This document shows positions 1,015 to 61,038 of a DNA stretch of 64,000 bases, piece by piece. A program made the position numbers and the translations under genes. The stretch is from Sistotremastrum niveocremeum HHB9708 (Eukaryota; Basidiomycota; Agaricomycetes; Sistotremastrales; Sistotremastraceae): assembly GCA_001630475.1 (NCBI GenBank), contig KV419411.1, positions 124,001 to 188,000 on the forward strand, in the 5' to 3' direction. A model generated the notes under the pieces. The model searched no databases, was not told the origin of the DNA, and saw only the letters and a list, made by a program, of their open reading frames with translations. The first letter of the stretch is position 1, and every line of letters starts with the position of its first letter.

Positions 1015-2241
1015 ATGTCTATTGCCTCCTCGGACACCTACCGCATCCCCGAGATGCTTAAAAATTGGCCCTGGCCCAGACGCATCAATCCACATTTCAA
1101 AGGGGCCAGTTCCGCATCCGCCGCTTGGCTGGAGCAGTTCAAGCCGGAAAGTCCTGCGGTTCAAAAAACATTTGCCACCGATAACTCACGTACGAGCGTT
1201 ATATCATTTCTCTTCCCCAAGCTGATAAATCATTTCAGACGGCCTGCTATCATCATTAGCATACCCTACTGTAGATCCGAGTGAGTATTTACTTCTTGCC
1301 TCAATCTGATTGAGGGATAGCGAACCGTCTTCCAGAAACACTTCGCGTGGCTTGCGACTTCCTAGCCGTCCTGTTCATCATTGATGACTCCACCGATCCC
1401 GAAACCTCCTCTGAAGTTGGAAGCGTGGTGGAAAGAATTAAGGATGTGTTCAGAAGTCCACTCCAGGTTCGCCAAGAAGACATCGTCTCGGAGGTGACCC
1501 GACAGTAAGCCATCGCTTTGACATTTGGACCATGCCGTAACAATGCAGTGCAGATTCTGGGTAAGAGCGAAAGAAATTTCAAGCACTGCTCAGCAGGAGC
1601 GTTTCATCAAGAGTTTCAGTGCATACCTCGATGCAGTGGTAGTTGAAGCTCGTGATCGAGATATTCACCATATCCCAGACTTCGATGAATACCTCACCGT
1701 CCGCAGGAATACTGGAGCAGTTCGCCCATCGTTCTGGATCGCAGAAGGCGCAGCCGGAGTTCCAGAGCATGTTCTTGAACATGAAACTTTAGCCACATTG
1801 ACAACCTGCGCCGTGGACATAATCAGCATCTCGAACGTACGTGGTTTTCTGTTGCAAATGAAGAATCGAGTCTCACTTCAGAGGTAGGACATGCTCTCAT
1901 ACAATAGAGAGCAATCTCGGGGCAGTCTCCATAATATGGTGGCAATAGCAATGAAGAGGTTGGATCTGTCGTTGCAAGAGGCAATGGATTGGACTTCGAC
2001 ACGTCATGATGCCCTTGTCAGCAAGTTTCTGAATAGTTTGACTGAAGTGCCATCGTGGGGGAAAGAGATCGATGCGCGTGTTACGACCTATATAGATGGT
2101 CTGGGATATTGGGTTAGAGCTAACGAGGCTTGGAGCTTCGAGGGTCCGCGATACTTCGGAAACGATGGGGCTGAGATACAGAGGAGTCGGTTGGTAAAGC
2201 TGATTCCAGCTGGACGTGTGGTATTAGATGAGGTCGATTAA
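1015..2241 (+). CDS. Sesquiterpene synthase TPS-1 (class I)
   Basis: Predicted soluble class I terpene cyclase that ionises farnesyl diphosphate and cyclises it to a sesquiterpene. Five exons: 1015-1189, 1239-1280, 1336-1504, 1554-1836, 1888-2241, giving 340 aa, usual for basidiomycete enzymes. The N-terminus has WPWPR and a NPHF segment. The metal-binding motif is DDSTD (residues 89-93) and the NSE motif is NDMLSYNRE (223-231), with R in place of the usual K. PRYFG near the C-terminus supplies the Arg-Tyr pair. All motifs are present and no break is seen. Exon sizes match TPS-3 (55914) exactly for the first four exons, so these two are the closest pair. The N-terminal signature resembles the protoilludene-type clade, but the product cannot be predicted from sequence alone. 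Confidence 0.93.
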
Positions 2242-2698
2242 GTAGACCACAAGATTAAAGGGAATTATTGGGCAAGCCTAGCAACTCGTAGAGCCAGATA
2301 TAGATAAATGCCGATGAATGTCACTGCGTAAAAATGTTTGGGCGCCAGTTTACGGAAAGTGCCACGTGGCGTGTTGAATATTGTCTCACAACGTTTCATG
2401 GGTTTCGACGCCCAAATTTCCAACGACTGAATGATGCTCTCTCACGCAGCTCTACCTCCTTCTTCAATCTTTTTCATTCCTTCATTCTTGGCAATCAACG
2501 AGAATATATTGACCGTCGCCGGATGCATTGGTCGGATGAGGATCACAGCCCCGAACTCGCACGTTCGAGCTGACTTGGTCTTCCCTCAGGCTAAAGCTAG
2601 TTAATCAGTATTTGTTTATAGATATGTTGACCCGGCTTGAAGACAAATGAATGTCCTATCACAAGATTGATTTTCTCTTTCCTGCAACGCCAGTGAAT
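2016..2698 (+). repeat. Segmental duplication, copy 1 (TPS-1 3' end and flank)
   Basis: The end of the last TPS-1 exon and about 450 bases of downstream flank recur, diverged, at 5641-6276 and 7911-7960. Shared landmarks are 'tttacggaaagtgccacgtgg', 'atgcattggtcggatgag' and 'gattttctctttcctgca'. This copy keeps the working gene. It was later interrupted by the MITE at 2701. Confidence 0.75.
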
Positions 2699-2700
2699 TA

Positions 2701-3081
2701 CTGTACCATTTTGACAACGCCGGCGGCGGGTTTGGACACGGACATCGATGAGACACTGCGGCGGAGCGGCTGACAGGTTGGGGGACATGGGACATTATGA
2801 ATTTTGGCGGCGGCGGCTATCAGTGCAACGGCGGCTGGGCTCGAATATCAGTCTCTTGAGGTCTCATATGTATAGTAACAGTGTTCCGAGCAATTTCATT
2901 CTTCAAAACACAATACTACACTTGTATGTAGTGCTATATTGAAGAGAATACTATTTGTCGGCGTGATGTCATCCTACTTGTCCCGGCGGATGTCAAGCTC
3001 GGGACACGGAAATTTGTGTTTTAACAGGCGGCGGCGAGGCTCCGGGACATGGGACAATCCGGCGTTGTCAAAATGGTACAG
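2701..3081 (+). mobile_element. TA-flanked MITE (Tc1/mariner-type), copy 1
   Basis: A 381-bp non-coding element with inverted ends: it starts CTGTACCATTTTGACAACGC and ends with the reverse complement. It is flanked by TA on both sides (2699-2700 and 3082-3083), the target duplication used by Tc1/mariner elements. An almost identical copy of the same length lies in opposite orientation at 37973-38353. No transposase is encoded, so it is a non-autonomous element. The near-identity of the copies suggests recent movement. Confidence 0.88.
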
Positions 3082-3083
3082 TA

Positions 3084-3660
3084 CTGTAATGAAAACCGTT
3101 GTTGACCGGTTAGAATGATGGGCTCTCTTCAAGACCGATGACTACTCAGTCTATGTGAATCCTAAACACGGTTGTGTCTGAAGTACAAACCGAGACAAGT
3201 CAATGGCTCAAGATATCGAGCTTGTCTCGGATGGCTGTCGGAGCGCCCAACGGACCCGAAAACTTTCGTTCGAACCATTTGGTCAAAGCTTCTGGTTTTC
3301 TATGGTCATGCACTAGAATCAGCTCTCTGGGATCTTGTATCGGTATTCTCGTCGGAGCGCCCACGGTTCCTGGCGTTGGCATTGTGTTCTTCCTGGATTC
3401 CTGGCCAGTCGTCGGTATCCCCGGGTTTCGTCATCAGGCGTTCGAATCTAACGAATCTATGTCTTTGCTTCTTTCTGATCCGGGAATACATCTATCTAGT
3501 CACCTGAGTCGTTTGGGGAAGTGAATTCTGATAACGCCCTTTTGGTCCCGTTGAACGGTAACGTCAACATCCACAGTATTCTTAGTTCTGTACAAAACTC
3601 GGCCGTCTTCCTTGTTCATCTCTTCTTTACGAGGTTCCCCAGAGCTCGATTCGACTTCAT
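3084..3660. other. Intergenic spacer
   Basis: Two overlapping plus-strand open frames (3172-3524) are present, but neither has a domain, a splice pattern or a paralogue here. I treat them as chance frames. The end of the spacer holds the promoter and leader of the CBM1 peptide. Confidence 0.45.
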
Positions 3661-3661
3661 C

Positions 3662-5463: not shown

Positions 5464-5640
5464 TCGTTCGAAACGGCGGACAGCTCTACGAACAAGAGGG
5501 GAGTTGAAATATTTCAAGCCAGCCTATTCCGACCGCTAGCTCCTCGAGAAGGCCAGTATTTTTACCTATGCCAATCCCAGAATCGGTCGAGGTTCTTCCC
5601 GTCCGGATCCGTCAGTGTGGTCATAGCAGTCATTGCGTTG

Positions 5641-5867
5641 TCGTCGAGTTCCTAGATACTCTGAATAAAGTGCCATCCTGGCCGCCTGGCGAAAAGATAT
5701 CAACGAACGTCTTATCACCTATATGGATGGTTTGGTTATTGATTCAGAGCTCAAGAGGATGGAGCTTCGAGTGCCCACGACATTTCGGCCAGGATGGGGC
5801 TGGGATACAGAGAGGTCGGCTGGTAAAGCTGATTCCAGCCGGACGTGTGGTAGATGAAGGGGCTTAG
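5641..5867 (+). pseudogene. Terpene synthase relic (3' part of last exon)
   Basis: Only the last third of a terpene synthase final exon remains: a LNKVPSW segment, GWSFECPRHFGQDG, and a C-terminal RLVKLIPAGRVV that matches TPS-1 almost word for word. The middle has drifted and no upstream exon (DDxxD, NSE) is present nearby, so it cannot make an enzyme. It is part of the duplicated TPS-1 tail. The conserved Arg-Tyr pair has become Arg-His. Confidence 0.85.
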
Positions 5868-12280: not shown

Positions 12281-13528
12281 ATGACGATGGGAGATGCTCT
12301 GCACGTCGTAGTCCCTTACATCAAACTCGCCCGTCTTCACATTCTGGCTGGTCCCAGTCTCGTTTGGTGGCCATGTGGTACGTTACAAACCTCGGTCGAC
12401 TGTGGGATAATCGTCATTGAACGGGTCATCTCTTGGTAATAGCTTGGGCGTTGACCTTGGTCGCAATATCGACTGGAATGCCGACCATAATTTTGATAAA
12501 AATGTTGTCGCTCTTCTTCATAGGAAGCTTCACGCTCCACAGCGCTGAGTGTGTTTGGAACGACATATGCGATGTCGATTTTGATCGCAAAGTCGGTGAG
12601 TATTTTTTTCGACCATCAACATCGTTTCGAGATCCTAACATCTGCCATAGAGAGGACCAAAAACCGACCATTAGCCGCCGGACAAATATCGCTCCAGGCT
12701 GCCGGGCTATTCCTCCTGCCCCAAGTGTGCCTGTGTCTCGGCCTTCTGCTATTGACCTCAGCCGAAACGTGGGTAAAATTGGCGAGTTGAGTCTCATATT
12801 CGCACTGATTCCGTGTTCTAGGATCTACGTTGGCCTATTTGGCCTCTTCTTCCTGGACACGTTGTACCCACTTATGAAGAGAGTTACGTATTGGCCGCAG
12901 GCATGGCTCGGTGAGTTATCTACTTATGATCATCGCCATGCTTCTTTGCGCCTCGTTGCGATCGAGGCAGGGTCTCTATATAGATCATCTGTATTGATAT
13001 CATGCTTGCAGGCATCGCGATCAACTGGGGTATCCCCGTGGCAGGGCTCGCTGCGACAGATCGACCAGATTGGCGCATGCTCGGGGCTCTCCTGGTGGGA
13101 GCGTGGTGGTATGCATCTCCGGCTTATTCGCTATTATTCTAAATCACTAATCGTATCTTCGTTCTTCGTATAGCTGGACGCTGCACTACGACACGTGTTA
13201 TGCTTTCCAAGATAAGAAGGATGACGTCGATGCCGGTGTGAAATCGACGGCCCTCTTATTCGGCCAATGGGGACGGCCCTTCCTCCTGTTCTTTTCCGTT
13301 GGTTTCATTACTTCTCTATGGAGCGCTACACGACTTGCCAACATGGGAATGCTGGGCACGTTCCTGAGTATCGGCGGCGCCGCGTTTCATCTCCTCTGGC
13401 AATTGTTGACTATTGATCCGGAGAACCCGATGTCTTGCGGATCCGTATTCAAATCCAACGGAGAGCAGTTAGGGTGGATCGTTTGGTCTGGTATGCTTCT
13501 CGATTATCAACTCAAACAATTTGCTTGA
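12281..13528 (+). CDS. UbiA-type aromatic prenyltransferase (COQ2-like)
   Basis: Six exons (12281-12377, 12443-12595, 12651-12768, 12822-12910, 13012-13108, 13174-13528) give 302 aa. The multi-helix membrane enzyme has both Asp-rich diphosphate/Mg motifs: NDICDVDFD (72-80) and YDTCYAFQDKKDD (190-202). It also has the family's RTKNRPLAAGQIS and PLMKRVTYWPQAWL stretches. UbiA enzymes attach a polyprenyl chain to an aromatic acceptor such as 4-hydroxybenzoate. The protein begins almost directly at the first helix, without the long mitochondrial leader expected of housekeeping Coq2. With terpene synthases and an aromatic FAD hydroxylase nearby, a secondary-metabolite (meroterpenoid) role is plausible. 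Coq2 itself remains possible if the true start lies upstream. Confidence 0.9.
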
Positions 13529-16187: not shown

Positions 16188-17853
16188 TCAAGTGTCAGGC
16201 AGCCAAGGAGATCGTCCATACAGCGCCAAAATATTTCCGTCGATCGGCTCCAGGACTCCGTCACCGTCAGCCATAAACTCTCGGAAGTAGATATGGAGGA
16301 ATTTGAAAGAAGGTTCGGTCGTATGTTGGGGATTTAGGAGGGTGATGATGTCCCCGATTTCGAGGGACTCTTGGCTGTGCAGAGGATTGGACGAGATAGG
16401 TGTGAGAGGTGCGAAACGGGGGAGAAATCCTTCTAAATTGCATTCAAGTTCGACATCGAGTGACAAGCCTTTGATGCCCCTGACTATCAGTGGGACCAAT
16501 CGATGCAGCTCGTCGCAAAACAACCCAATCCAGTAAAGGAATGTTGGATCGTCAAGAGATGCAATGCGGATGTTCTGTAAGCGACGTGACTTGTGTGGAG
16601 CAAGCTCAATGTTAAAGAAGATCCAAGGGTTGATATGCAACCAGCGGAATTCGTGATCCAGGAATGGCAAGCTGGCTATGACTCTGGACAGATTGTCAAG
16701 ATGACCCATTTGTCGGTCATGAACTGGTGTTTCGATAGAAAGAGTAATGAGAGAGGGAAGTCGCAGACCGGAGAAATTGATGTTGCGAGGGTACCAGCCC
16801 TTGTCAGTGAAGGTGAAAATTTCGAGTTGCGTGAGTTCGAAGGTACGGGAGGCGACATCCGTTGGCATGCCAACATCGATCAGTTGAAGGTCTTGAAGGC
16901 GAGTGAACTGCGATGCCGCCTGAAGGAACCCTTCCCATCGCGACCTGGGGAAGTTATGCTCACCCGCGCTCAGGCATAACTTTCGTAGACCAACACACGA
17001 AAACGTGAAAGGCTGTAGCAGTTCAGTATGGCTGATGGTGAGCTCCTGTAGCACATTAGGATATTCCGATAATCCTTGGGCCACGGAGTTTTCGTTACCC
17101 CGGGCTCCCATCCTCCTAGTCACTGTCAGCGTACGCAAGTGCTGTGGGGAGAGGGACAGTCTGAGCGTCTGATTCAAGTTATTCAAATCCTCATACATGC
17201 TCAAATCATGAGCACGTGAGATGAGGATTTTCAGCTCATCAGCAGAGATTGTGGGGTACCAGAGAGCATCGTAAGGTCTTTCATCATCAAAGAGCAAGTT
17301 CACTTGAAGAGGAACTTCGCCCGATCTCCGGACAAAAATGTCACGTATCTGGGGCGGCCAGATCGCCTCGATGTAAGACCAAAATCCTGGAGTCCTCAAG
17401 GCCGTTTTGCGCCAATACCAACACCTGGAGACGCTAGAACATCAGTACACGTAAACCCAGATGGGCCGACATACACTCTGAGGATATCGAACCACTTGTC
17501 ATATGAGATGGATTCCTGTTTTCTTGTCCGCAAATAGATCCCGTGATATTCGAAAATACGAGACAGGATTTCGGGAGGGAGAACAGAGATCGGCAGTTGA
17601 GCATTAATTTTGCAAGCTGCCTCCTGCAACACTAGGGAAATCTGGCTCTGAATTCGCTGGTGGGCGTCATGCATCTTTATCGTAGCTTTCTTTGCCCCTT
17701 CGAGACCCAGATATGAGCTTAATTGCTCATCACTGCGATCAACACAACATTAGTGACAGGGGAAGTTCGACCTTGCATCGCAGATGATGCTCACCAACCA
17801 GGGACGATGAGGCGACGTATAAGCAATCTCAGTTCCTCTTCGGTAGCTCCCAT
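16188..17853 (-). CDS. F-box protein, tandem copy 1
   Basis: Three exons (17853-17795, 17732-17475, 17424-16188) give 517 aa. After a short N-terminal exon (MGATEEELRLLIRRL), a helical stretch leads to an F-box-like motif around residues 68-115: SVLPPEILSRIFEYHG, then WFDILRVCWYWRKTALRTPG and FWSYIEAIWPP. The long C-terminal part has irregular leucine-rich segments (LRKLCLSAGEH, RLQDLQLIDVGMP) such as F-box adaptors use to hold substrates. It would act with Skp1 in an SCF ubiquitin ligase (family knowledge). The exon pattern is identical to the two neighbours, so the three arose by tandem duplication. The end motif LYGRSPW is shared by copies 1 and 2, with CGRSPW in copy 3. Confidence 0.85.
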
Positions 17854-18249
17854 CCCCGTGGGTTGATACTGAACGTCGATAGAGCGCCAATTCCTGAATA
17901 CCGGATGGCGGACACGCGCTGGGACCGGTGCGAGAGGACGAAGAAACCGTGTTGGGTATTGTATCTTATGTAACCAGTGCACAGCCCGACACGACGAGTG
18001 AGACTACCGTGATGCTGACTAATCTGTCGGCACCGAAACCGCATACTGTATCAAGCTCTTGCGAAACTACTATTCAAACCTCTGCTATAACACTTTGACA
18101 GAAAATAGAGATCGAGGTGAATGCTATACTACAGGGCATTTTGCTCGTTTGAAGTACATGTCCATAACGGAGCATCACTGGCTCAAGCACTGGCTTTACA
18201 GGTAGATCTCGCATCAGACATCAGGCGTGACCATAAGTACGTGCCACAC
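17854..18249. other. Spacer between F-box copies 1 and 2
   Basis: Nothing coding seen; it should hold the promoter of copy 1. Confidence 0.5.
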
Positions 18250-19947
18250 TCACCTCAAGGAGTCAACTAGAGTGTCAGAAAACCAAGGGGATCGACCATA
18301 TAGCCCCAAAACGTCTCCGTCAATGAGTTCGGAAACTTCTTCGCCGTCGGCAAGAAATTCTCGAAAGCAGATAAAGAGGAGTTTATAAGGACGTTCAATT
18401 GTATGTCGGGGATATAGGAGGGCGATGATGTCTCCGACTTCGAGGGACTCATGACTGTGCAGAGGATTGGACAAGATAGGTGTCAGAGGGGTAAAACGGG
18501 GAAGAAGTTCTGCCAAGTCGCATGCAGTCTTGACATCGAAGGACATCCCCATGATGCCCTTCATTATTGATGGTGCCGTTTTGTGCATCTGGTCGCAAAA
18601 TAAGCTAATCCAGGTGACGGAAAATAAGTCCTGTGTTGTCGCGATGCGGAGTTTCCGTAAATGTCGTGAGTTACTTGGTGCAAGCTCGATGTCCAGGGTG
18701 AGCCAAGGGGCTATGTGTAACCAGCGGAACCCGTGATCTAGGAAAGGGAGCGTTACTATGTGCTTAAAGAGGTCGATCACAGGGATTGTGTCATCGACAT
18801 CGATTGGTATTTCGAGAGATAGGGCAGCGAGGGAGGGAAGTTCTAAACCGGAGAAATTGATGTCGAAATGCGGATACCACTCGCAGCTTGTCACCTCGAA
18901 GGTTTTAACCTGGCCAAGTTCGAAAGTACGGTAAGCCGTATCTTTTGGCATGCCGGTGTTGACGAAAAGAAGTTCTTGAAGCTGAGGCAGCTGCGACGCG
19001 GTTCCGAAAAAAGTATCCCACTGATCCCTCGAGAGGTTTGCATTAGCTCTGAGGCACAGCGTTTGTAGGCTGGCACATGCAAGACTGAGAGGCTGCAGCA
19101 GGTCGACGTGGCTGATGGTGAGCTCCTTTAAATTATTGGGAGATAGAGACACTCTCGTGGCAAATGGATTTATGGGAAATCCAAACAAGTGTCTCTTGAT
19201 CAAATTTAGCTGACGCAAACTCGGGGCGGACAGTGATGCTACCGGGTTTCCACTGAGTCCAAGGAGGTCCTCATAAGTGCTCAGTTCTTCGGCATGAAAC
19301 AGCAGCTCTTCCATCTGGAAAATGGAGATGTAGACGGTATAATACTGAGAAGTATGGTCCCCCCAATTCATATTACTGAGCAAGTTGACTCCAAGGAGAA
19401 CGTTCCCACTCCGCTCGAGGAATAAGGCACGAACTCGAGGCGGCCAGATGACTTCGATATAGGACCATAGTCGCGGGATTCTCAGAGCCGTCGTGCGCCA
19501 ATGCCAGCACCTGGGGAAATCAGGATAATAGTATGAGGCGACAGTACATAATTCGGATTGGCTGACGTACACTTCGAGGATGTCAAACCAAGCTTTGTGT
19601 GAACTAGGGTCTTGCCTTCTCGTTTTTGAATAGTCGCCGTGATGTTCCAGGATTCTAGAAAGTATTTCTGGGGGAAGAACAGATATAGACAGCCGTAGGT
19701 TGATGTTAGACGCCGCTTCCTGGTACAGCGAAGAGATCTGTCGCTGAATTCGCTGATGGACATTATCCAGATATATAGTAGCTTCTTCAGCCCCTTCAGG
19801 CCCCATATATGATGTTAATCGATCATCACTGCGATAGACATCAATTCAGCCACCTCAGCTTTACATCGAAGCCTTTTCAAGTGCTCACCAACCCCCGACG
19901 ATGAGTCGATGCAAAATCGCTTTTAGTTCCCCTTCAATGTCTTCCAT
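18250..19947 (-). CDS. F-box protein, tandem copy 2
   Basis: Exons 19947-19889, 19828-19571 and 19510-18250 give 525 aa. The F-box is SVLPPEILSRILEHHG followed by WFDILEVCWHWRTTALRIP and LWSYIEVIWPP. The C-terminal region is leucine-rich and aligns along its length with copy 1 (FRWLHI.PW, SNPLHS.ESLE.GDII, LYGRSPW). The second intron (60 nt, GTACGT..CCCAG) is a multiple of three and contains no stop, so the unspliced frame stays open from about 19806 to the end. I choose the spliced form because it restores the VCWHWR motif found in both paralogues. Confidence 0.84.
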
Positions 19948-20432
19948 CTCGATGGACTTATAATTAACCTCAACAGAACTGCGATTTCGGTGCCACTGAG
20001 CACTGAACGTTGAAGTTGAACTCGCGCTGAGACCGTTGCGAGAAAGCGTGGATGTGACCACCGTGATGCTGACAAATTCGGCGGCATCGAAACGGCTGAC
20101 TCAAAACCACGCAAGCTGTGAGAAAAGCCTTGACAAAAGATATAGAAACGAGTATGGGTCAATTTATAGGGCGCTTCAACTACTCCTCTGAATCAAGTTT
20201 ATATGTCAATTATGGATGAGTCAGCACAATGAACAAAGCCCTCTCCTTCGCTCTAGATTGCGCATCAGACGGGATCATAATTTCATACCAATAAACCAGG
20301 CCTCGGTTCCATGAAGGACGAAAGAATGATTTGTGAGGCTGGGACTAGTCTTTCTGGGCGTCCATCATGTAATTCGAGGGAGGAGATTCCGGACTTCAAC
20401 CTCCAGAGCTCGATGAACCATACACTGAAACA
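19948..20432. other. Spacer between F-box copies 2 and 3
   Basis: No supported gene. It should include the promoter of copy 2 and the terminator of copy 3. Confidence 0.5.
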
Positions 20433-22151
20433 TTACGAACACGGTCCAGCTGAGCGCCAAGGAGATCGCCCACACAGTACCAAGACATCGTCGTCATTTG
20501 ATTGCGGGATTTCTCCAGCGACGGAGTCTCGGAAATAGACGTGGACGGAATTATACGGAAGCCCAGTTGCTGGATTTCGAGATCGCACACGGAGAAAGAC
20601 ATCTTTCGGGCTGATGGGCGACTCGACATGTGGCAGACTCGACGAAAATGTGGTGAGAGGAGTAAAATCGAGAAAGAATTCTTCCAAGTCGAGCGCAGCA
20701 TCCGCACTCAAAGACAACCCCATCAGACCTTTGAATCTCGATGGTACCATCTCGAACATCGTGTTACTAAAGGTGATAATCCAGGATGTCAACTCCGAGG
20801 AGTTTGTCGCTGTGACGTGAATATTCCGCAAACGATTAGTGTCGTCGGATGCGAGCGTGATTTCGATGTCGAGCCAGCTCTTGATTGAGAACCAAAGGAA
20901 TTGGGGAGTTAGACACGGAAGGGTACATAAACCCGTGCAGATATCTTTCACCATATCTCTATCGTCGATTGACGATTGCAGACTCAGCATGGTGAGCGCT
21001 GGAAGATCGACACCGGAAAGGTTGATGTGACGCATGGGATAATACTCGTCATACTTGAAGTGGAGAGTTTTGACATGCGCGAGTTCGAAAGCACGGGCCG
21101 CAATGCCGGCCGGCATACCTGTCTCAATGATGTACAGTTCTTGGACTTGAGGGAGCTGTGATGCGTTGTCCAAGAAATCGTCCCAAAGATCTCTCGGAAG
21201 ATTTTTGAAAGCTCTCAGAGACAATTTCCGCAAGCCGGAGCAGGCCGGCTTGAGAGCTGGGAGTAGTTCGACGTGACTGATGACGAGTTCTTGTAATGTA
21301 TCGGGAGACAGAGACAATCCCTTTATCAACGGATTCATGTCGATGGGGATTCTGGGAATCCCTCTCCTGAGCAGCCGCAGCCGATGCAATTTTGGTGCAG
21401 AAAGTGTCAGTCCGCTCTCGGCATCGGACCCAAGCAGATCCTCATACGTGCTCAGCTCATTCGAATGCAAGAACAAATCTTGCAACTGTACCCCAGTGAT
21501 TGGGGATGTCCAACGAGAGAAGCGGTCGTGATCTTCCCAGTTGATGTTCGTGAGGAGGTTGACTCTCAGAGGAACTTTCCCAGCGTGTTTAAGGAAAAAG
21601 TTACGGATTGGAGGTGGCCACACGACTTCGATATTTGACCAAAGTCGCGGAGTTCTCATAGCCGTCGTGCGCCAAGACCAACACCTGAAAACGTCGAAAA
21701 CGTCGGGATATGAGATGTGTAGATGATTTGGATTTCGACCACGTACACTTTGAGGATGTCGAACCAAGGTCTATATGAATCCAATCCCGGACTTTTCACT
21801 GGTAGTTCATCTCCGCGGAGATGGTCTCCGTGAAATTCGAATATCTTGGACAGAATCTCGGGCGGAAGAGAAACTGGCAACCGAACGTTGATCTTGGATG
21901 CGGCAGCCTGGTACAAGAGGCTAATCTGTCTCTTAATTCGCTGATGAACATGATGGAGATGTATCGTGGCTCTCTTTGCTTCTTCGCAGTCCAGTCGTGA
22001 ACCTGGTCCATTTTCACTGCGAATGGCATCAGCACAAGAACCTCAAAAACTCTCTGCAAGCGCTGCTATTGCAGTCTAAAGGTTGTGCTCACCGACCGGC
22101 AGAGACAAGCTGACCTAAGAGCGCTTTGAGTTCATCTTCGTTGAATTCCAT
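20433..22151 (-). CDS. F-box protein, tandem copy 3
   Basis: Exons 22151-22093, 22016-21747 and 21684-20433 give 526 aa. The N-terminus is MEFNEDELKALLGQL. The F-box region reads SLPPEILSKIFEFHGDHL, with a four-residue insertion relative to the others, then PWFDILKVCWSWRTTAMRTP and LWSNIEVVWPP. Leucine-rich C-terminal segments follow (LRKLSLRAFKNLP, VQELYIIETGMP). It is the most diverged of the three copies. The identical phase-2 introns in all three confirm common origin. Target proteins are unknown. Confidence 0.84.
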
Positions 22152-34028: not shown

Positions 34029-35326
34029 ATGTCTTCGTCGTCATTACCTACCATCCGTCTGCCAAACATGCTCGATAACTGGCCGTGGCCACGAACACTC
34101 CATTCCCAATACGAGAGTCTACGAGCCGATTCTGCCGCCTGGCTATCCCAGTACAAATCGGAAAGTCTGGGTGTCCAAAAAGTTTTCGCCGGTGGCAATT
34201 CAGGTGAGACGCCCGACCGTTTCGCCTCGACATCTTTTTGACAGAATCTCCCCACAGAATCGCTCTTGGCCTCTCTAGTTTGGCCTGACGTTGACTATGG
34301 TAAGTATGAGTAATTTTGTCGTATCTGATTCTCCATCGCTGACAAACAACTACTTGATAGAGTCTCTCCGAGCGGGATGCGATCTAATCAGCTCCGTCAT
34401 TATCACGGACGATTGCCTGGATGTTGAGACTGGATCCAGTGCGGAGGCGATCATCGACGCTATCCTCCATGCCTTCCACCATCCCGAAGTTCCGACACCT
34501 GCGAGTGCACCCATTGCTGCGGAAATCACCAGACAGTAAGATACTCCATCTGCGTCTTGTTCTTTTTATATATTGACGCTCGCGTCTCAGGGCATGGACT
34601 CGGGCGATGAAATTGGGAAGTCCGAGCCAGCGAAGAAGATTCATTCAAAAATACGGTGACTTCTTGAGGGCTATTACAAAAGAAGCAGAAGATCGCGATA
34701 CGGAGTACGTGCGCGATATCGAAGAGTATATGCAAGTACGCCGGGACACGATTGCTTCGCGGCCTGCGTTCTGGGTTGTGGAGTGTCTGTCTGGTATCCC
34801 GGAACACATCGCGGATCATCCGAGCATATTGAAGCTGTCGGAATATGCTACTGAGCTTATCATCATCACCAATGTGCGTCTTGAAATCAGATCCGACCAT
34901 CTCGTTGATTGACAAAGTTTACAGGATGTTGTTTCGTACAATAAAGAACAAGCTCAAGGATCCATCCACAATCTCGTTGCTATCGCCATGCTCAGTCTCA
35001 ACCTCACAGTCCAAGAAGCCATGGATTGGACAGGAGCCCTCTTCGAAAGCATCGTACAAAAATTCCTCGCAGCCCTAAACAAAGTACCATCATGGGGTCC
35101 AGACATCGATTCGAAAGTCGCGGTCTATATCGATGGACTTGGGAACTGGGTGAGGGGACATGAAGTCTGGAGTTTTGAATGTTTGAGATATTTTGGGAAG
35201 AAGGGGAAGGATATTCGGAATAGTCGATTGGTGACGCTGTTGCCTCCTCGCTCGGTCACGGGAAGAGCCGATGCTCAACTCCCTCCACCGCTTGTCACGA
35301 GTCCTCCGGCCGCTACGGTGTGTTAG
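34029..35326 (+). CDS. Sesquiterpene synthase TPS-2 (class I)
   Basis: Five exons (34029-34203, 34258-34299, 34361-34535, 34591-34873, 34925-35326) give 358 aa. The N-terminus has LPNMLDNWPWPR. The metal motif is DDCLD (89-93), an unusual DDxxD with Cys at position three. The NSE motif is NDVVSYNKE (225-233) and the Arg-Tyr pair is replaced by LRYFG, which keeps RY. The last exon is about 48 nt longer than in TPS-1 and adds a Pro/Ala-rich tail. Exon 3 length matches TPS-4 (59786), and so does the NDVVSYNKEQAQGS segment, so these two form a second subfamily. Farnesyl diphosphate is the expected substrate; product unknown. Confidence 0.92.
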
Positions 35327-37171: not shown

Positions 37172-37208
37172 GCTTGGGCAAGTTACTCAGAAGGGCCGTC
37201 CTCACCGC

Positions 37209-37717: not shown

Positions 37718-37972
37718 CTCACCGCGCTGCCTCAAACAGTTAAATAAGACCGCTCCCTTCGATCCTCATCTGGGCGCAGAAAAGATCATGAATGGCTATT
37801 TTAAGTCATGTTGGAATCTTCCGACATCGCCTGTCAATTTTGGAGAGTTCTCGGACAATATCCTGGGTGACTTGGGTGATTTCCGTGCACGATGTTGCTA
37901 TCGGGTATATATCAGATTCGATACTTGTATAGTCCTTATTACTCATAATTTTTTTCTGAACGGGTGAAGATA

Positions 37973-38353
37973 CTGTACCATTTTGACAACGCCGGATTGT
38001 CCCATGTCCCGGAGCCTTGCCGCCGCCTGTTAAAACACAAATTTCCGTGTCCCGAGCTTGACATCCGCTGGGACAAGTAGGATGACATCACGCCGACAAA
38101 TAGTATTCTCTTAAATATAGCACTACATATAAGTGTAGTATTGTGTTTTGAGGAATGAAATTGCTCGGAACACTGTTACCATACATATGAGACCTCAAGA
38201 GACTGATATTCGAGCCCAGCCGCCGTTGCACTGATAGCCGCCGCCGCCAAAATTCATAATGTCCCATGTCCTCCAACCTGTCAGCCGCTCCGCCGCAGTG
38301 TCTCATCGCTGTCCGTGTCCAAACCCGCCGCCGGCGTTGTCAAAATGGTACAG
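37973..38353 (-). mobile_element. TA-flanked MITE (Tc1/mariner-type), copy 2
   Basis: 381 bp, the same length as and nearly identical to the element at 2701-3081 but inverted. Ends CTGTACC..GGTACAG lie between TA dinucleotides (37971-37972, 38354-38355). Non-coding. Confidence 0.88.
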
Positions 38354-38419
38354 TACAACAGACATATAGAAAAACAAAAAACCCCGGGCTCCCGAGGCCA
38401 TCAGAGAATTTGAAACCGC

Positions 38420-42404: not shown

Positions 42405-43827
42405 ACTTGACGAAGCATATGTATTCGTCGATGGTGAACGTGTAGGGTACCTCGAACGGGGCCTTGTCGAATAGTGCTATATCAGAGATAATTTCAGTTC
42501 ATTTTCGAGATACCATATACTGAAATTCATAAATACCTTGTGGCTGCTCAAGAAGAATTATGCCTCTGCGACTTTGCCGGACGAGCCGGGCAGAGGTCTC
42601 TCCTCAGATTCGTGGATAATACTATTTGGCAACCCGGTTTCCGGGGTTGCCATGATTAATACTTGATTTCTGAAGTAAGCAGGATCATGAACGTTGAACA
42701 CGGCAATTGCCGATAGACCTTCGTCTCGCCAGGACCGAAGTTACTGAAGGCTCATCGGACGCTGCCTCACGGGTTCATCATGGGTTCAGACTTCAACTCT
42801 GGTGACTACCTCTATTCTCGTCGACCCGCACTTATCCTTCCGTACAGTTATTGTATGCAACAGGTGGTCTGGATTGATGGCTTCGTGGGTGCGGCTCAAG
42901 ACGCGACGCTCGCTAATGAGAGAAGGCATCTGTATCTGGAGTCTCTGCAGATTGATTGTATGGAGAAGATGACGAGAACGGGTGAATACCTCGCGAGGCT
43001 CATGAGGTACGTTTATCGTTTCGTTTCGTACTTGGCCAGGAGCGCTGACTATATCTGTCCCCTTCGCTCTGGCCGCCTCGTCACCTCAACTCCCACCTCG
43101 ACGATCCCATCCCACCTCCATCATTCAGCATTGGCCGATGTCATTTCCTCACATCCCATCCACGTCTCTCCATAACTATTGGGCCATTGTCTTCTTCTCC
43201 TTGAAGTCTTCCCGCGTATCTCCAATCCCAGATCCGTTGCAAACTCCCTCACTCTTTTATCGTACACTTAGAATCTCTGTACCTCATCTCTGCAGCCTGA
43301 AATATAATTTACATCGAACTTCGGAGTTAGGGCACCACTATCCCGTTATCATGATTTGTAAGAAAAATTGAAGCAACCCCGGAAACCGGGTTGCCAAATA
43401 GTATTATCCCAGATTGGTACCCTTCCTCCTCCTCCTCCTCTTCGTCCTCCTCATCATCATCGTCATCTTCAAGACCCTCTTCTTCCAAAAACTTGGAAGC
43501 TCTATCCATCAACTGAAGAACCTCTTCCCTAAAACTAGGATCCTCCTTTATCATGACTGCCATATGCCGCAACTCCGGGTTTTCCTCCAACCTGGCTAAG
43601 ATGGAGTCTATCTTGGCCTGTTTGATAGCCTCCGCTTCGGCATCTTCTGATGCTATGAAGCTTGGAGATTTGGATGATGTAGGATCTTGCGATCCCAGTG
43701 GAGGTGACGCCCCTTCTACCGGCATGGTAGGAGTCTCAACGGGAGTGGTGAGGCGAGACTCGCGAGGAGATGACATGGACAATTGCTTCGTCGAATCGGC
43801 GAGTGAGTCAATGCTTTTGGAAGTCAT
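42405..43827 (-). pseudogene. Acidic protein paralogue A, split by a Mutator-like element
   Basis: Degraded paralogue of the gene at 44054-44964. The 5' part (43827-43410) encodes MTSKSIDSLADSTKQLSMSS, a charged middle and a long Asp/Glu run. The second exon survives at about 42475-42405 (FDKAPFEVPYTFTIDEY), aligned residue for residue with the start of exon 2 in copy B. Between them sits the element at 42614-43409. The coding remainder between the element and the intron has an in-frame stop, and exon 2 is cut short by a stop after FVKLS. It is therefore no longer able to make the full protein. Confidence 0.75.
42614..43409 (+). mobile_element. Mutator-like non-autonomous element
   Basis: A 796-bp unit with perfect terminal inverted repeats of about 37 bp (start GGATAATACTATTTGGCAAC). 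Each end folds further into a small hairpin (GGCAACCCGG..CGGGGTTGCC). It is flanked by 9-bp direct repeats with one mismatch, CAGATTCGT (42605-42613) and CAGATTGGT (43410-43418). Nine-base duplications and long ends fit the Mutator superfamily. The interior has a protein-like open frame at 42780-43010 (DYLYSRRPALILPYSY, NERRHLYLESLQ) ending at a splice-donor-like site, consistent with a captured host exon. Confidence 0.82.
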
Positions 43828-44053
43828 TGGATTGACGCTGTTGGGATGCAGAATTTCTGTAACTTTGTGGTGTTGGACAAAGCAAGGCAGAGTTAACTCG
43901 TGTTTGGCCTGCATTGTTGGCAAGTTGCCGAAAACGGCGAAAAGTTCAGACACCGCGAGATGAAGTCTTCATCCTCAATATGAGATATATCTTACACTGA
44001 CGACTCGGAAGAATATCAGGAAGCTGTTTACATGAACAACAACACGTATTCGA

Positions 44054-44964
44054 TCAAAGACCCAAGTTCGTTGCGCCCCGCAAGAACAAAGCAGCGGATT
44101 CGGCGGAGAGCTCACCACCACCCCAAACCTGGTTGAAGAGCAGACTGAAACCACCACTTCCATCTTTCTTAACAAAATGAATCGTGCTTATGGATGGATG
44201 CCAAGGCCATAATGTTCCTGACTTCTTAGTAGGATTGACTTCTCGGTATACGGATGTTCGCCCTCGCTCGATGTAGACTTTGAACGGGAGGTCATCGGAT
44301 GGTAGCAGCGGCTGTCCATTGCGAGAGACCTGTATACCGTAACACGGACCCATCCCAAAATCTTGAATGAGTTTTACGACGCCTTGGAATTCGTCGAACG
44401 AAAAGGTGAAGGGCAGCTCGAACGGGACGGAGTTCGTTTTCACTGAAGCGAAGATGAGACTCGACCATAGACATTTAATAAAAACATACCTTTCGGTGAC
44501 TCAGAAAGACGAAAAGTCTCCTCTCTGGCTTTCTGTTCTTGGTCGGCAACAGCAATAGCTTCCCATGCTCGAGATCCGTATTCTTCTTCTTCCTCTTCTC
44601 CCTCTCCCCCCATGTTTCCTTCCTCTCCTAGTTCGGCTATATCAGCCAGATACTCACGTATTTCGTCGACCAATCCGCGATCTTCCACAACTTTTAGAAC
44701 AATGTCCCGCAAAGCCCGATCGCGCTGCAACTCGGACACAATGTGTTGTATGGTCTGCCAACTCAGCGGTGAGTCGGCTCCAGATGCTTCGTGATTCGCC
44801 GGAGATCGAGGCGTAGAAGCTGGCAACTCAGATGGAGGCGACATGGCTGACGTTGCCTTCTTCACGTGTGTGGTCTTAGTTCCAGCGGGATGAGCAGGAC
44901 CAGAAGGCTTAATAGACAAATGTTGCGTCGAATCGACGAGGGCGGCGATACTGTTGGAAGCCAT
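44054..44964 (-). CDS. Acidic protein of unknown function, paralogue B
   Basis: Two exons (44964-44490, 44442-44054) joined by a GTATGT..TTCAG intron give 287 aa. The N-terminal half is low-complexity Ser/Pro/Thr-rich (SIAALVDSTQHLSIKPS), followed by a helical segment (VSELQRDRALRDIVLKVVE) and a Glu-rich run (about residues 120-130). The second exon is well structured: PFTFSFDEFQGVVKLIQDFG, CYGIQVSRNGQPLLPSDD and GTLWPWHPSISTIHF. I do not recognise a family. The C-terminal half looks like a folded beta-rich domain. A decayed paralogue lies next to it (42405-43827). Confidence 0.68.
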
Positions 44965-46650
44965 AGGATGGACACTGCTCGAATATCGATTTTTTGCAAC
45001 TCTCTGGCGGTGGACGAAAGAAGGAAAAGTTGATGCTTGTTTGGCAGGTCCGTCAGGTTGCCGCAAACACCGCGAAATGAAATCATCACGTGCATCTAGC
45101 GTTAAGCGAATAATTCAGTGAAACTGTGACGCCGAACCAGATCATGCGAAGGACTTTGATGACTCTCGGACTGGATTCCGAGATGAATTTTCTTGAACCA
45201 CGCTCACCCCAACGGTCGCGATAACTTGACTTTATATTGCTTTGTAACAGGACTGGGAGCTGAGTCTGGGACGGAGACGCATAGGTTGGTGTCGACTCCG
45301 AGAAAGTCTGATAATTTCGAGTTCCGAAGAGGAACGATCAGAAAACCCACCCTCTCAGAGCCGAATGTTGAAACCTGGGATCGTTGAACTAACTGGTGGT
45401 AAGCTGTCAGATTTCTGCACCGGCTGGGATCCACTGACGTGTTTGATATTGCGTAGGTTGACGCAACTGCCCTCATAGTTTGAATGCGAAGCAATGCTAT
45501 TGCAACGTGTTTCGAAAGGAGAAGCAGCTCAGGGGGAATGGTAGACAAGGGTATCCCTATATATCTTAAAATCGCCTAATTGGCCTAATTCAAGGCCTAA
45601 TTTGAACGTAAGTCTAGGCACGGACCGGTAAAATATCAAGACACCGTACCGCAATAACCCCCGTAAAGAAATGGTGAGCCGGAAATATGTCTTTCTCGCT
45701 GATTTTCCCATGAGTTGATGCGCTGACGTGCGGACCCTGCTGTTTACCTCATGGTTTACCTCGTTGTTCCAAACATTAGCGCCCTCGGTAACTTCCGGAG
45801 TTCTGAGCGTCTCGCCGTGGCGCTCGCAAAGACGCTGAAGTTTCGAGATTAACGGATCGCGTACCGAGCACAGCTTGAAGAGCTCAACTTGCCCCAGCAG
45901 CGTGCAGAGGTCGTGCTCGGATAATCTCATCAGGAACTGAGATAACAAGCAAATTGATTTTCGAAGCTATTGCTCGAATACAGCTGGTAGGTACTACGCC
46001 GGATCGTCCGGGTAGGGATATTCTATCATCCACTGATGAGTCTGCTTCTCAGTCTCATGGAAAAGCTACGGCAGTCTGCAGATGAAGTTCAGTAAAGCGC
46101 AACTCCGACATTGGGTCTCGCTTGTGAGGGAATTAATTCTAGATGTTCTACTCCTGAGTCCTGATGCGTGTAAGATTTTGGCGACCAAATTTCTCTGATC
46201 CTCAACTGATTTTTGGTACGTTCGTGCAAATCAAAATTCTTAGGACTGGGATCCGGAGGATAAGCATCTATCAGTGTATTCCTGATGGATCAGATCAGCG
46301 AACCGAAACCGGCTTTATCTTCTTCTTCAAGGGAGGTCTTGCACAAGCGAACCCCCCGGCCCTCGTCAGTAAACCTATTGCCTGAGTTACCCGTTCCGTC
46401 TGTCTCACATGCTCGTCTCTGGCGAGATGCAGCGGGGATGAAGATGTTGAGCTCATAATACCGGTGCGTCCACTGGCATAAATGAATTCGTAAGTGCACG
46501 ATGCGTTGTCTTCGACGACAATAGTGACAGATATCATATCCTCCCCATTGGTACAGTACGAGGTGGAGGGTCAGTTTCAAAACTATATAAGGAGATGGAT
46601 CTTGGTCGTCACCGATTCATTCCCCAAAACAACTGCCCTACGAAACACCC
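44965..46650. other. Intergenic, one weak coding candidate
   Basis: On the minus strand, 45948-45760 has a protein-like stretch (RLSEHDLCTLLGQVELFKL, SKLQRLCERHGETLRTPE) ending at a GTAAAC donor-like site. I could not find a convincing next exon, so it is not called a gene. Confidence 0.35.
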
Positions 46651-49200: not shown

Positions 49201-49411
49201 CATCACGCCGAAGCGAGCACATCGCAGCGGGAAAGCTCGCCAGCGACCTCAGTCCATGTCAAACTTCCAGCTTCCCTCACTATGCCCTTGTAGTATAAAC
49301 GCCTTCCAATGTCTCTGCGAATCGACCTCGATACATCGAAGACTCTGGATCGTTTAGCTCCCTGTTCACGCTACCCCAGATCATCTGACACTCTCCGTCG
49401 TCGACTTCACC

Positions 49412-55913: not shown

Positions 55914-57132
55914 ATGTCCTCCCTCCCTGCTAGAACATTCGTCCTTCCTGAAATGCTCAACGAGTGGCCATGGCCCAGAGTCCTGAACCCACACGCTGAC
56001 GATGCAGGTCCTGCGTCTGCGGCCTGGCTCGAACAATTCAAGCCAGAGAGCCTTGCTGTACAGAAGGTTTTCGCAGGTGGTAACTCAGGTGAGAATTTAG
56101 CGCGGCGTGTTCGTCGTGATCTTAAAATTCCGCAATAGAGGGCCTCTTGTCGTCGTTAGCATATCCAACAGTGGACAACCGTAAGCCTTTCTATTTTAAT
56201 TGAAAGTCGAGGTTGACCTTCTCTTATCAGAAACGCTTCGGGTGGCTTGTGACCTCATGAGCACTCTTTTCGTTATCGATGACTATACCGATCCCGAGAA
56301 ATCAACCGACGTTCAAGCCGTAGTTGATAGGATAAAGGATGTATTCCGTGATTCAGTCACCGTCAGAGACGGGGATGTGGTTTCAGAAATCACTCGACAG
56401 TGAGTCGCCACAACTCAAATATATAAAATAGCACTGATTCCCCTTCAGATGTTGGCTGAGAGCCAAGGAAATTTCCACCCCAGCTCAACAGGAAAGGTTC
56501 ATCGAACAATTCTGTGATTACCTCGATGCTGTGGTCCTTGAAGCCCACGATCGCGACGATGACAATGTGCGAGACTTCGAAGAATATCTCGCCGTACGCA
56601 GAGATACCGGTGCCGTTAGACCGTCCATTTGGATCGCGGAATGTGCCGCCGGCGTTCCGGAACATATTCTGAATCATGAAACTCTATTGACGTTGACCAC
56701 TTGTGCCGTGGATCTTATTATTATTTCCAATGTAAGAATTAATTTCTCTTCGCATTTCCTAAGCTAATCCTTTTCTTGTAGGACATGTTCTCATATAACA
56801 AGGAACAAGCTCGCGGAAGCCTGCATAACATCGTCGCCATTGCGATGAAGAGGATGAATCTATCTCTCCAAGAAGCTATGGATTGGACTTCGGCTCGCCA
56901 TGATGCCGTAGTCGACAAGTTCCTGTCCACCCTGAACGAAGTGCCGTCATGGGGGGAGGAAATGGATGCCCGAGTCGCCAACTTAATTGATGGTTTAGGG
57001 TATTGGGTCCGAGCTAACGAAGCTTGGAGCTTCGAGTGTCCGCGATATTTTGGAAAGGATGGTCCTGAAATAAAGCGGACCAGATTGGTGGAGCTAATTT
57101 CAGCTGAGAGTGGTGCGAGGAACGGAGCGTGA
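55914..57132 (+). CDS. Sesquiterpene synthase TPS-3 (class I)
   Basis: Five exons (55914-56088, 56139-56180, 56231-56399, 56449-56731, 56782-57132) give 339 aa. N-terminal LPEMLNEWPWPRVLNPH, metal motif DDYTD (89-93), NSE motif NDMFSYNKE (223-231) and ECPRYFG with the Arg-Tyr pair are all intact. It is the copy closest to a textbook enzyme, and the sister of TPS-1 by exon sizes and by shared stretches such as AWLEQFKPES and the LHN..AIAMKR..LSLQEAMDWTS region. It likely acts in the cytosol on farnesyl diphosphate. MCT-3 is its divergent neighbour and an AA9 gene follows convergently. Confidence 0.94.
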
Positions 57133-57499: not shown

Positions 57500-58573
57500 T
57501 TACTCTCCAGTCCACACAGGCTAGAACGCAATAGTCAGTGACTTGTGGGATACAGCATTATTGTTCCGACTCACGGGACCGGGCTGAGTGTAGTTGGCGG
57601 GGATGGGATAGTTGATGTTGATGAGAATGCCCGGTTCCTTGTCGAGAATATCAGTCGAGTCCCAGACGAAAACGAACAGCTATAGGCGCTTACATAACCA
57701 GTATAGACGCCGGGAATGGCGACGAGAGGCCCGGGTGTGCCGCTTCCGCCGTTAGTGACTTCAACTTGGCCACAACTGATGTAGAACTGGGCTCCGCCGT
57801 AGCTTTGAGCGACGTGGAGGGCAATCGCTTCGATGCGGACGAGATATCTAGAGTGCCAAATGGTCAAAGATTGTGCTGAGTCCGAGAGGCAGATGTACGA
57901 CTTACTGTCCAGAGGGAAGAGCTGTGGGGAGAGGGAAGGAGACGCCGGGAAGATCTGTGAAAGATGTGAGATATGGTAAAGAAATGTCGCGTACAACACG
58001 TACTCTGAGCAGGCCAAGAAATCGATTCTCCTCCGTTCGTAACAGCGGAGATTTGGTAAACCTTGAACCAAACATCGCCATCTCCAGCCCAGCTAGAGAC
58101 ATCGGTCCCGTCTGGAGCTTTCGCCATGTAAATGTTTACGACCTTATAAGATTCGACTTGAATATCGAATGACGTATGTATCGGAGATATCACGTACACC
58201 AGGATGATAGATGGTTCCGTCGCTCTGCAGACCGATAGTAGAACCGGCCGGAACAGAAACGTAGGTTTGTGCAGTAGGGTTGGTTGCCGAGTCATAGCAT
58301 CTCAAGTCAATGCTCGTGACATCGGTGACCTAGCAAGATAGCTGAGTTAAGGCGAATAAGCATGTTCGGAAGTCCTACCGGAGCCTGAGTGTTGAAGTTG
58401 TTCGTCTCACGAACGTATTCCCAGTCGGAAGTGATGGTGGACCCCACGATAAGGGAAGGGAAGGTGTCTGAATAGCATTTAGCAATATGCGATGAGTGTT
58501 TCAAAAGCAACTCACAATGTGCCGCCGCTTGAGCGATGACAGACGAGACAATCAATGAGATGAAGGACTTCAT
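57500..58573 (-). CDS. AA9 lytic polysaccharide monooxygenase (no CBM)
   Basis: Eight exons (58573-58516, 58467-58379, 58329-58198, 58142-58004, 57954-57906, 57847-57694, 57637-57575, 57520-57500) give 234 aa. An 18-residue signal peptide ([18 protein letters not shown]) is followed directly by His19, the copper-brace N-terminal His of the mature enzyme. The second copper His is in GTIYHPG (H91). The family signature [13 protein letters not shown] and [14 protein letters not shown] supplies the axial Tyr (Y178). The C-terminus [19 protein letters not shown] is typical. AA9 enzymes oxidatively cleave cellulose or related glucans outside the cell. There is no CBM1; a separate CBM1-only peptide lies at 3662. 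The exon coding the last six residues is only 21 nt. Confidence 0.93.
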
Positions 58574-59785
58574 GATTAAGCCTGAGACGTGTGTCGCTTT
58601 AGCTTGAAAAACTAGGGCTCTCGTCTAGGATTTATATACTTTTCTGTCATCCCAACAACGCTGAAACCTAACGGCAAACGGTGGAGCCCAAGGCGAAAAA
58701 TAGCTCTTCATTCAGCCTTTCGGCATGACATAGTGGCGCGAAGGTAGTTGTACATGTGAGTCCATCATGCCTCTGAATTGAATGGCGCGAGTCGTCGTTA
58801 ACGAGAAGGCTCGGAGAAGCAGCCATGGCCGACAAGTTTACGAAGCTTTGCCTAATTCTTCCCCGCAGGATTAGAGATTGCAAGGCCTTGAAATGGTAGA
58901 ACTGACGTACCAACAAGACTGAAAATGATATGCAGTGTTGACTGCTCGGAATAGCACGATCTTCAAATTAGAATGATAAACGTGGCAGCAGGAAGGGCTC
59001 GGATTTTACGGGTTCATTCTCTGGTCATGTTCAAGATCATTTTTCGAACTCCGATCGCCTCGTCTTCGCCCACTTTGCGTGCTGCATTCTACTTGCTATC
59101 CAGCCTCTGGGCCTGTTTAACTTACCATATATGCATGAATCTATGTCGACGACCTTTATAATCACAGATAAAGCTAAAGGAATAGACGTGAGCTCTTTCC
59201 TAGTCACAGCTCGGTCACCTCGGTCTTTGCTTTATGATCATAGGAGCACTGGAGCTACTTTTGGATATGTCTTGGTTCTTCGGAACAGCTTCAACGTTTT
59301 CAAGCTTATGTGAAAGAAGTAATTAGACTGTCAATTTACGGAGGAACATCGCATTGAGCCAAAACGGTACATTCGGCATCTGGGTGGCAGATGTAACCCG
59401 ACGCGCTACTGTATTGATATAATAGCTTCTCAGAAGGATGAAATAACGCTGGGGCTTCACACTATCCCGCTCGTGATTGACTGAATCTCCCTCAATCCCG
59501 ACAACTGTGCGTTCCTGAAGCTGGGCTCCACTCGCTGATGACGAAGTCGGTGGGGCTCCCTTCCAAAATGTTGTGAATTCTGGCGAAGTATCTGACATTC
59601 CCATCAGACCTGACATTCATGCCGTATATGAGTTGTCTAATCCTGGAATCAATCCGATATCAAGATGGCGACTTGTTACAAGTGTGGCATGTCATCAAAT
59701 CTCTCTCGCGTCAATTTCTAGATACCAAGAAAGTACATTTTCTATATGCTAGGACGTCACTGCATCTATTCCCATACACATGTCT
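58574..59785. other. Intergenic, 1.2 kb
   Basis: A minus frame at 59616-59323 (MSDTSPEFTTFWKGAPPT) looks mildly protein-like but has no partner exon or known domain; not called. Confidence 0.4.
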
Positions 59786-61038
59786 TTATCTCGTCCCATC
59801 ACTCCGACCCATGACTGAGCGAGGAGGCAAGAGTTGTACGGTTCGGCTCCTGCGCGCTTCCAGTCCGGAGTTCCCGAAATATCTAGGAGACTCGAAACTC
59901 CAGACCTCGTGCCCACGTACCCAATTTCCCAAACCTTCGATATACTGCTCTACTCGATTGTCAATATCTGGACCCCACGAAGGTACTTCCTCCAAGCCCT
60001 TGAGGAATTTTTGAACAATGTCTTCGAACAGACCGCCCACCCAGTCCATCGCGTCCTGAATACTCAGGTTATATTGGTTCATGACAACCGCCACCATATT
60101 GTGCACAGATCCTTGTGCTTGTTCTTTGTTGTATGAGACCACGTCCTGCGAGAAAGCACACTGTTAGTCAAGACTACCTTCAGCAATAGATCGCAAGCTC
60201 ACGTTGGTGATGATAACGAGGTCGGTGGCATGATCCATAAGGGAGACCAGACTGGGGTGGTTGAGGACGTAATTCGGGAGATTCAAGGAACATTCGTTGA
60301 TCCAGAAGGCTGCTTTGAAAGCAATGGTATTTCTGCGGACAGCCAGGTATTCATCGAAATCTCGGATTTTGTCATCGTCTCTATCGGCTGCTTCAATGAC
60401 GACGGCGTTCAAGAAATCGCCGTAAAGCCTGAGGAATCGGGGACGCTGTGACGGGGTTGATAGTTTCATCGCTTTCAACCAGAATCTAGAAGCGCGATAT
60501 GAACACTCAGACATGGGAGATGGAGCCATGAGTACTGACTGTCGAGTGAGCTCTGCAATTACTGGTCGATCCCGGGGCATTTTTACATGAGGGTTGTTGA
60601 AGCCCTCATTAATTGAGTCGACAATAGCCTGAGCTTCTTCTGCGCTCTCGGTGTCTCCACTGTCGTCCGTGACTATGACGGACGTCAGGAAATCACTTTC
60701 CACGCGCAACATTTCTGCAATCATTCCGCTGTTAAGCTTCCGGAACATAATCATTTCGAGAAAAGATGAGATTACCTGCGTTGGCAGTGGGCAACACCAA
60801 AGCAGCGAGAAGCGCCTCTGTGGATTGATAAGTAAAATGTATCGTGCCAACAATTGATGCACCTACCAGAGTTTCCACCTTTGAAAACCTTCTTGATCCC
60901 AAGATTTTCGGGGTTGAATTGCTTCACCCAGTTCACTGAGTCTTGGCGCAGCTGCTCGTAGCCTGGGTTCAACCTTCGGGGCCACGGCCAGTTGTCGAGC
61001 ATCTTGGGGAGTCGGATGGTCAGGGATTCGAATGACAT
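59786..61038 (-). CDS. Sesquiterpene synthase TPS-4 (class I)
   Basis: Five exons (61038-60867, 60817-60776, 60714-60540, 60485-60203, 60145-59786) give 343 aa. LPKMLDNWPWPRRLNP opens the protein. The metal motif is DDSGD (88-92), a weakly typical DDxxD. NSE motif NDVVSYNKE (224-232) and SPRYFG with the Arg-Tyr pair are intact. The third intron has the rarer donor GTCAGT. It is the sister of TPS-2 by exon-3 length (175 nt), the NDVVSYNKEQAQGS segment and the shared ending LLPPRSV.GR. Substrate farnesyl diphosphate expected; product unknown. The start MSFES is preferred to an in-frame ATG 19 codons upstream because it aligns with the other copies. Confidence 0.92.

What the first reader, a model, noticed from the sequence alone, without database searches (positions are those of the whole stretch)
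1015..61038. Four intact sesquiterpene synthases plus one relic in 60 kb
Four five-exon terpene synthases with identical intron positions, all with DDxxD, NSE and Arg-Tyr motifs, are scattered through the window with a fifth in ruins. Exon-3 length and the NSE flanks split them into two sister pairs (TPS-1/TPS-3 and TPS-2/TPS-4), so at least two rounds of local duplication occurred. Such density at one locus suggests ongoing product diversification.
Basis: partly seen in the sequence, partly recalled or inferred. Interest (0 to 1): 0.75.

Follow-up and report, generated by a model that had tools for sequence, protein, structure and literature searches.

The report
Old fungal sesquiterpene synthase gene array
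A fungal chromosome stretch carries an array of related enzyme genes of the kind that make scent and defence terpenes; the array is real, older and larger than first thought, and of a kind already known from mushrooms.

Summary
The window has four open five-exon class I sesquiterpene synthase genes (T1-T4), each with DDxxD, NSE and Arg-Tyr motifs and intron phases 1,1,2,0. The fifth is an exon-5 fragment at 5637-5867, beside T1. T1/T3 and T2/T4 pair in the tree (96/93 and 100/99). The window cuts the array short: three more copies lie within 35 kb to the right, giving seven in 97 kb that form one clade (100/99) among 19 loci of the genome. Synonymous differences are saturated for 20 of 21 pairs while amino-acid change stays well below, so the copies are old and constrained; recent, ongoing birth is not supported. 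What is recent is decay: copy T7, outside the window, is split in exon 5 by a 796-bp element identical to one in the window at 42614-43409. Distinct products are plausible but only inferred. No P450 haem signature was seen in 164 kb. Nearest solved enzyme: a Delta6-protoilludene synthase. Tandem synthases are common in basidiomycetes (25.4% of genes, PMC10210940): a new member of a known kind.

The parts
1015..2241 (+). T1, sesquiterpene synthase, exons 1015-1189, 1239-1280, 1336-1504, 1554-1836, 1888-2241; about 340 aa
   Evidence: Spliced alignment; motifs; PDB 8h72 at E 1.2e-82 with the first T1 model
5637..5867 (+). Relic: later part of exon 5 of a T1-like synthase, middle out of frame, RY pair reads RH; no exons 1-4 found
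   Evidence: window 5638-6265 matches 2015-2627 at 71%
34029..35326 (+). T2, sesquiterpene synthase, exons 34029-34203, 34258-34299, 34361-34535, 34591-34873, 34925-35326
   Evidence: PDB 8h72 at E 8.8e-78
55914..57132 (+). T3, sesquiterpene synthase, exons 55914-56088, 56139-56180, 56231-56399, 56449-56731, 56782-57132; pairs with T1 (71.5% aa)
59786..61038 (-). T4, sesquiterpene synthase, exons 61038-60867, 60817-60776, 60714-60540, 60485-60203, 60145-59786; pairs with T2 (58.8% aa)
42614..43409 (.). 796-bp transposable element with 37-bp terminal inverted repeats and a 9-bp target duplication (8 of 9 bases alike); identical at 796 of 796 bases to the copy that splits synthase T7 at C18:220904-221699

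Best explanation
The window holds four of seven members of one locally duplicated family of basidiomycete-type class I sesquiterpene synthases. Each enzyme is expected to bind farnesyl diphosphate through Mg2+ held by DDxxD and NSE, to ionise it, and to cyclise the cation in a pocket shaped by aromatic residues and the helix-G break; 1,11 cyclisation (the clade III, protoilludene type) is the likeliest first step. The array grew by old tandem duplications, its copies were kept under constraint on the protein, and they have diverged far enough that different products are likely. It still loses copies: there are two exon-5 fragments, and one copy is freshly split by a transposable element. Shown: gene structures, motifs, one clade, saturated synonymous sites, the insertion. 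Inferred: selection, substrate, first cyclisation, distinct products, expression.
For: Gene models and motifs. Best solved relative is Delta6-protoilludene synthase 8h72. The seven C18 copies form one clade, 100/99, in a tree of 24 rows; T5 and T7 pair at 100/99 (T7 by exons 1-4). pS 0.75-0.87 with pN 0.17-0.47 for 20 of 21 pairs; T5/T7 (exons 1-4) dS 1.10, dN/dS 0.15. The helix-G effector position is Ala in T1, T2, T3, T4, T6 and Gly in T5 and T7; changes at that site alter products in other synthases (PMC10563020, passages). T7 is split by a 796-bp element with 9-bp target duplication TATATTCTT.
Against: No transcript, enzyme or product data. Only one protoilludene synthase (8h72) could be put in the tree, and the fork that joins it with the C18 and C4 copies and 8gy0 is modest (90/89), so the cyclisation type is not settled. 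Effector-site Ala also occurs in AcCop4 and C4_b by the script, and in C4_a by eye (the script's pattern caught an earlier Arg pair there), so it is not unique to this array. dN/dS cannot be computed for 20 of 21 pairs, because synonymous sites are saturated.
Confidence: 0.85

Rival explanations
1. Redundant copies: the enzymes make the same or nearly the same product and differ in when they are expressed (dosage or regulatory division of labour).
For: PMC10210940 (section 16) reports that 85% of tandem synthase genes fall in one clade and are predicted to share the cyclisation mechanism; the metal-binding motifs are kept in T1-T6.
Against: 59% and 72% protein identity in the two window pairs, 36-57% in the other pairs among T1-T6, and differences in the helix-G break.
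Confidence: 0.25
2. Ongoing, recent product diversification: young copies under relaxed or positive selection.
For: Several copies and fragments at one place; fresh insertion in T7.
Against: Synonymous sites saturated in both window pairs, pN far below pS; the fresh event seen is loss, not birth.
Confidence: 0.08
3. Part of a conventional biosynthetic gene cluster in which neighbouring oxidases finish one compound.
For: MFS transporter exons, a phenol-hydroxylase-like flavoprotein and a UbiA prenyltransferase lie in the window.
Against: No P450 haem signature in six frames of C18:74001-238000 (no positive control was run, and a signature split by an intron would be missed), and no C18 place among the 111 P450 matches listed genome-wide, where 92 of 301 candidates were scored. 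Other neighbours (Hrd1-like, AA9, unassigned tandem genes) have no evident link.
Confidence: 0.1

Closest known systems
Delta6-protoilludene synthase of Dendrothele bispora (PDB 8h72), clade III type
   Same: Near full-length match, 39-43% identity to T1-T4 (first T1 and T3 models), same motifs (8h72 DEHSD at the aspartate site)
   Different: 8h72 has Gly at the helix-G effector position, T1-T4 have Ala; products of T1-T4 unknown
Tandem sesquiterpene cyclase genes of Basidiomycota (PMC10210940, passages and section 16)
   Same: Local duplication within one clade at one locus; 25.4% of the genes in that survey lie in tandem
   Different: Here seven members spread over 97 kb with unrelated genes between them, so some may not meet that paper's rule of four genes up or down
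Psilocybe cubensis terpene synthase set (PMC12247026, passages)
   Same: 20 terpene synthases, nine in clade III, against 19 PF19086 loci here
   Different: CubD and CubE there are 95.6% identical in protein; the two window pairs here are 59% and 72%

Membership tests
Class I sesquiterpene synthase, basidiomycete type (PF19086) | PF19086 match over the curated cut-off | tested here: met
   T1-T4, 4 of 4 over the cut-off
Class I sesquiterpene synthase, basidiomycete type (PF19086) | Aspartate-rich DDxxD and NSE (NDxxSxxxE) motifs | tested here: met
   T1-T4, 4 of 4
Class I sesquiterpene synthase, basidiomycete type (PF19086) | C-terminal Arg-Tyr pair | tested here: met
   RYF in 4 of 4; the role of the pair is recalled
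Class I sesquiterpene synthase, basidiomycete type (PF19086) | Converts farnesyl diphosphate to a sesquiterpene | not testable with these tools
   needs an enzyme assay
Clade III (1,11-cyclising, protoilludene type) | Groups with characterised clade III enzymes in a tree | tested here: inconclusive
   8h72, 8gy0, the two C4 copies and the seven C18 copies group at 90/89, but 8h72 is the only protoilludene synthase among the 24 rows
Local (tandem-type) array | Copies at one locus are one clade against the rest of the genome | tested here: met
   7 of 7 C18 copies, 100/99 (T7 by exons 1-4)
Terpene biosynthetic gene cluster with P450s | Neighbouring P450 tailoring genes | tested here: not met
   no haem signature in C18:74001-238000 (pattern scan without positive control); no C18 place in the partly scored genome search

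The most novel reading that the evidence does not exclude
The C18 clade is a distinct branch of mushroom-type synthases in which an Ala-for-Gly change at the helix-G effector, with reversal to or retention of Gly in T5/T7, opened new scaffolds; the array would then be a natural series of effector-site variants with different products.
Probability: 0.15. Interest if true: 0.5.

Novelty: new member of a known kind. Interest (0 to 1): 0.3.

Why it matters
A set of old paralogues at one locus, differing at a site that steers products in other synthases (PMC10563020, passages), is a convenient natural series for linking sequence to terpene scaffold. It also shows birth and death in one view: six open copies, two exon-5 fragments, and one copy freshly split by a transposon whose identical twin sits within the same array.

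Tried and rejected
Rfam gave 0 matches in the window. The trichodiene-synthase family PF06330 gave 0 matches in this genome and in the 14 controls, so it is uninformative. My first T1 and T3 intron-2 acceptors were wrong and were replaced. A P450-bearing cluster was considered and set aside. Gene conversion within T1/T3 and T2/T4 was looked at in 30-codon windows: 56-79% and 47-71% nucleotide identity, no block of sudden near-identity. C50_a and C50_b have 692 and 874 extra bases in exon 5 without an inverted repeat of 15 bases or more; the 576-base first intron of C50_a has a 20-bp inverted repeat; their nature is left open. The species was not identified.

Papers: PMC10210940, passages and section 16; PMC10608071, outline with abstract and part 1 of 2 of section 11; PMC10563020, PMC9948225 and PMC12247026, passages only; all others only as search listings. 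I make no claim that something is absent from print.

Full report
Check of the observation. The window is C18:124001-188000 of a 34.7-Mb assembly of 111 contigs. A search with PF19086 gave 30 matches, which I grouped by position into 19 loci: seven on C18, five on C50, three on C41, two on C4, one each on C17 and C70. In the window I modelled T1-T4 with a spliced protein-to-DNA aligner written for the purpose and again with a profile of T2, T4, T6 and 8h72. All four are open, with the same intron phases and the same exon 2 and exon 4 lengths. DDxxD, NSE and RYF are present in 4 of 4.

The relic. At 5637-5867, about 3.4 kb past the end of T1, only the later part of exon 5 survives, its middle out of frame and its Arg-Tyr pair changed to Arg-His. 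Window 5638-6265 matches 2015-2627, the end and 3' flank of T1, at 71%, so it is debris of a tandem copy of a T1-like gene. A tblastn of C18:74001-238000 with nine C18 and C4 proteins and 8h72 found no exons 1-4 there. A second fragment, like T6 exon 5 (34 codons at 88%), lies at C18:217985-218092 outside the window.

Beyond the window. T5 (about C18:191816-190589, -), T6 (about 212035-210891, -) and T7 (from about 219986, +) continue the array, so seven copies lie between C18:125015 and about 222037, 97 kb. With C50 (five loci in about 45 kb) and C41 (three in about 35 kb), 15 of 19 loci lie in three clusters. Of the 19, 16 have models without stop or frameshift in the aligned stretch; T7, C50_a and C50_b are broken or doubtful.

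Tree. With 24 rows (19 own copies, five PDB chains) the C18 copies are one clade, 100/99; T2/T4 100/99, T1/T3 96/93, T5/T7 100/99, T6 with T5/T7 100/100 (T7 by exons 1-4). T1/T3 group with T5-T7 at 90/86; a T1-T4 clade is not rejected (AU p 0.143). An earlier tree, with uncorrected T1 and T3 and a T7 string read across its insertion, gave the same groups among the C18 copies. By position and phase T6 lacks the first intron, as do the two C4 copies.

Age and selection. By Nei-Gojobori counts pS is 0.75-0.87 for 20 of 21 C18 pairs, which my script reports as infinite dS (it stops correcting at 0.74); pN is 0.17 for T1/T3 and 0.29 for T2/T4. T5/T7, on exons 1-4, has dS 1.10 and dN/dS 0.15. These are old copies with constrained proteins (inference). 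This argues against recent, ongoing birth of copies, though not against divergence of products.

Recent decay. T7 is interrupted in exon 5, within the NSE-coding stretch, by a 796-bp element with 37-bp terminal inverted repeats and the 9-bp target duplication TATATTCTT. A second copy in the window at 42614-43409 is identical at 796 of 796 positions and has its own 9-bp duplication with one mismatch. Other loci of the genome share mainly the ends, at 82-92%; two, on C12 and C27, also share an interior stretch at 71%. The 9-bp duplication suggests a Mutator-like non-autonomous element; that label is recalled, not tested. T7 is therefore most likely a freshly disabled copy in this assembly; another nucleus or strain may lack the insertion.

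Function. The best solved relative is Delta6-protoilludene synthase 8h72. I placed the helix-G effector position by the Arg-Arg-x-x-x-x stretch, four residues after the second Arg (recalled placement). It is Ala in T1, T2, T3, T4 and T6 and Gly in T5 and T7; Gly in 10 of 10 copies on C50, C41, C17 and C70; Ala in C4_b, and by eye in C4_a; Gly in four of five PDB chains and Ala in AcCop4. The review PMC10563020 (passages) tells that changing this residue altered the products of 10-epi-cubebol synthase and of Gdol11S. This site and overall divergence are the only evidence here for distinct products, and they are indirect.

Surroundings. I gave Pfam 20 of the 44 open frames of 120 aa or more and made a coding scan. 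Found: MFS exons, a UbiA prenyltransferase, an Hrd1/synoviolin-like RING protein, a phenol-hydroxylase-like flavoprotein, an AA9 monooxygenase, three tandem single-frame genes without Pfam match, and by eye a CBM1-like secreted protein. No P450 haem signature was seen in six frames of C18:74001-238000 (no positive control, and a split signature would be missed). This does not look like a conventional oxidase-rich cluster.

Comparison and verdict. PMC10210940 (section 16) reports that 25.4% of basidiomycete sesquiterpene cyclase genes lie in tandem and 85% of those share a clade; PMC12247026 (passages) counts 20 terpene synthases in Psilocybe cubensis. The array fits that known pattern. It is a new member of a known kind, of modest interest; its best use is as a natural series of paralogues for enzymology.

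Noticed in passing
window 2699-3083 and 37971-38355: 385-bp element with 25-bp terminal inverted repeats, two copies 98% alike in opposite orientation; nine full-length places listed in the genome at 74-100%.
   Followed up: partly
window 42614-43409 and C18:220904-221699: Two identical 796-bp transposable elements; relatives elsewhere share mainly the ends, with differing interiors.
   Followed up: partly
window 16188-21767, -: Three tandem single-frame genes of 403, 518 and 444 aa, related at DNA level, without Pfam match.
   Followed up: no
window about 12445-13450, +: UbiA prenyltransferase-like gene in several exons, one of five UbiA places found in the genome.
   Followed up: partly
C50:37988-82718: Second cluster of five synthases plus a fragment near C50:80281-80768; two of the five have 692 and 874 extra bases in exon 5.
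   Followed up: partly
C41:89129-89419 and C41:100424-135235: A P450 match lies about 11 kb from the three-synthase cluster on C41, unlike the C18 array.
   Followed up: no
window 43327-45066, -: Two neighbouring 208-aa frames of similar make-up by eye, without Pfam match; the first overlaps the end of the 796-bp element.
   Followed up: no
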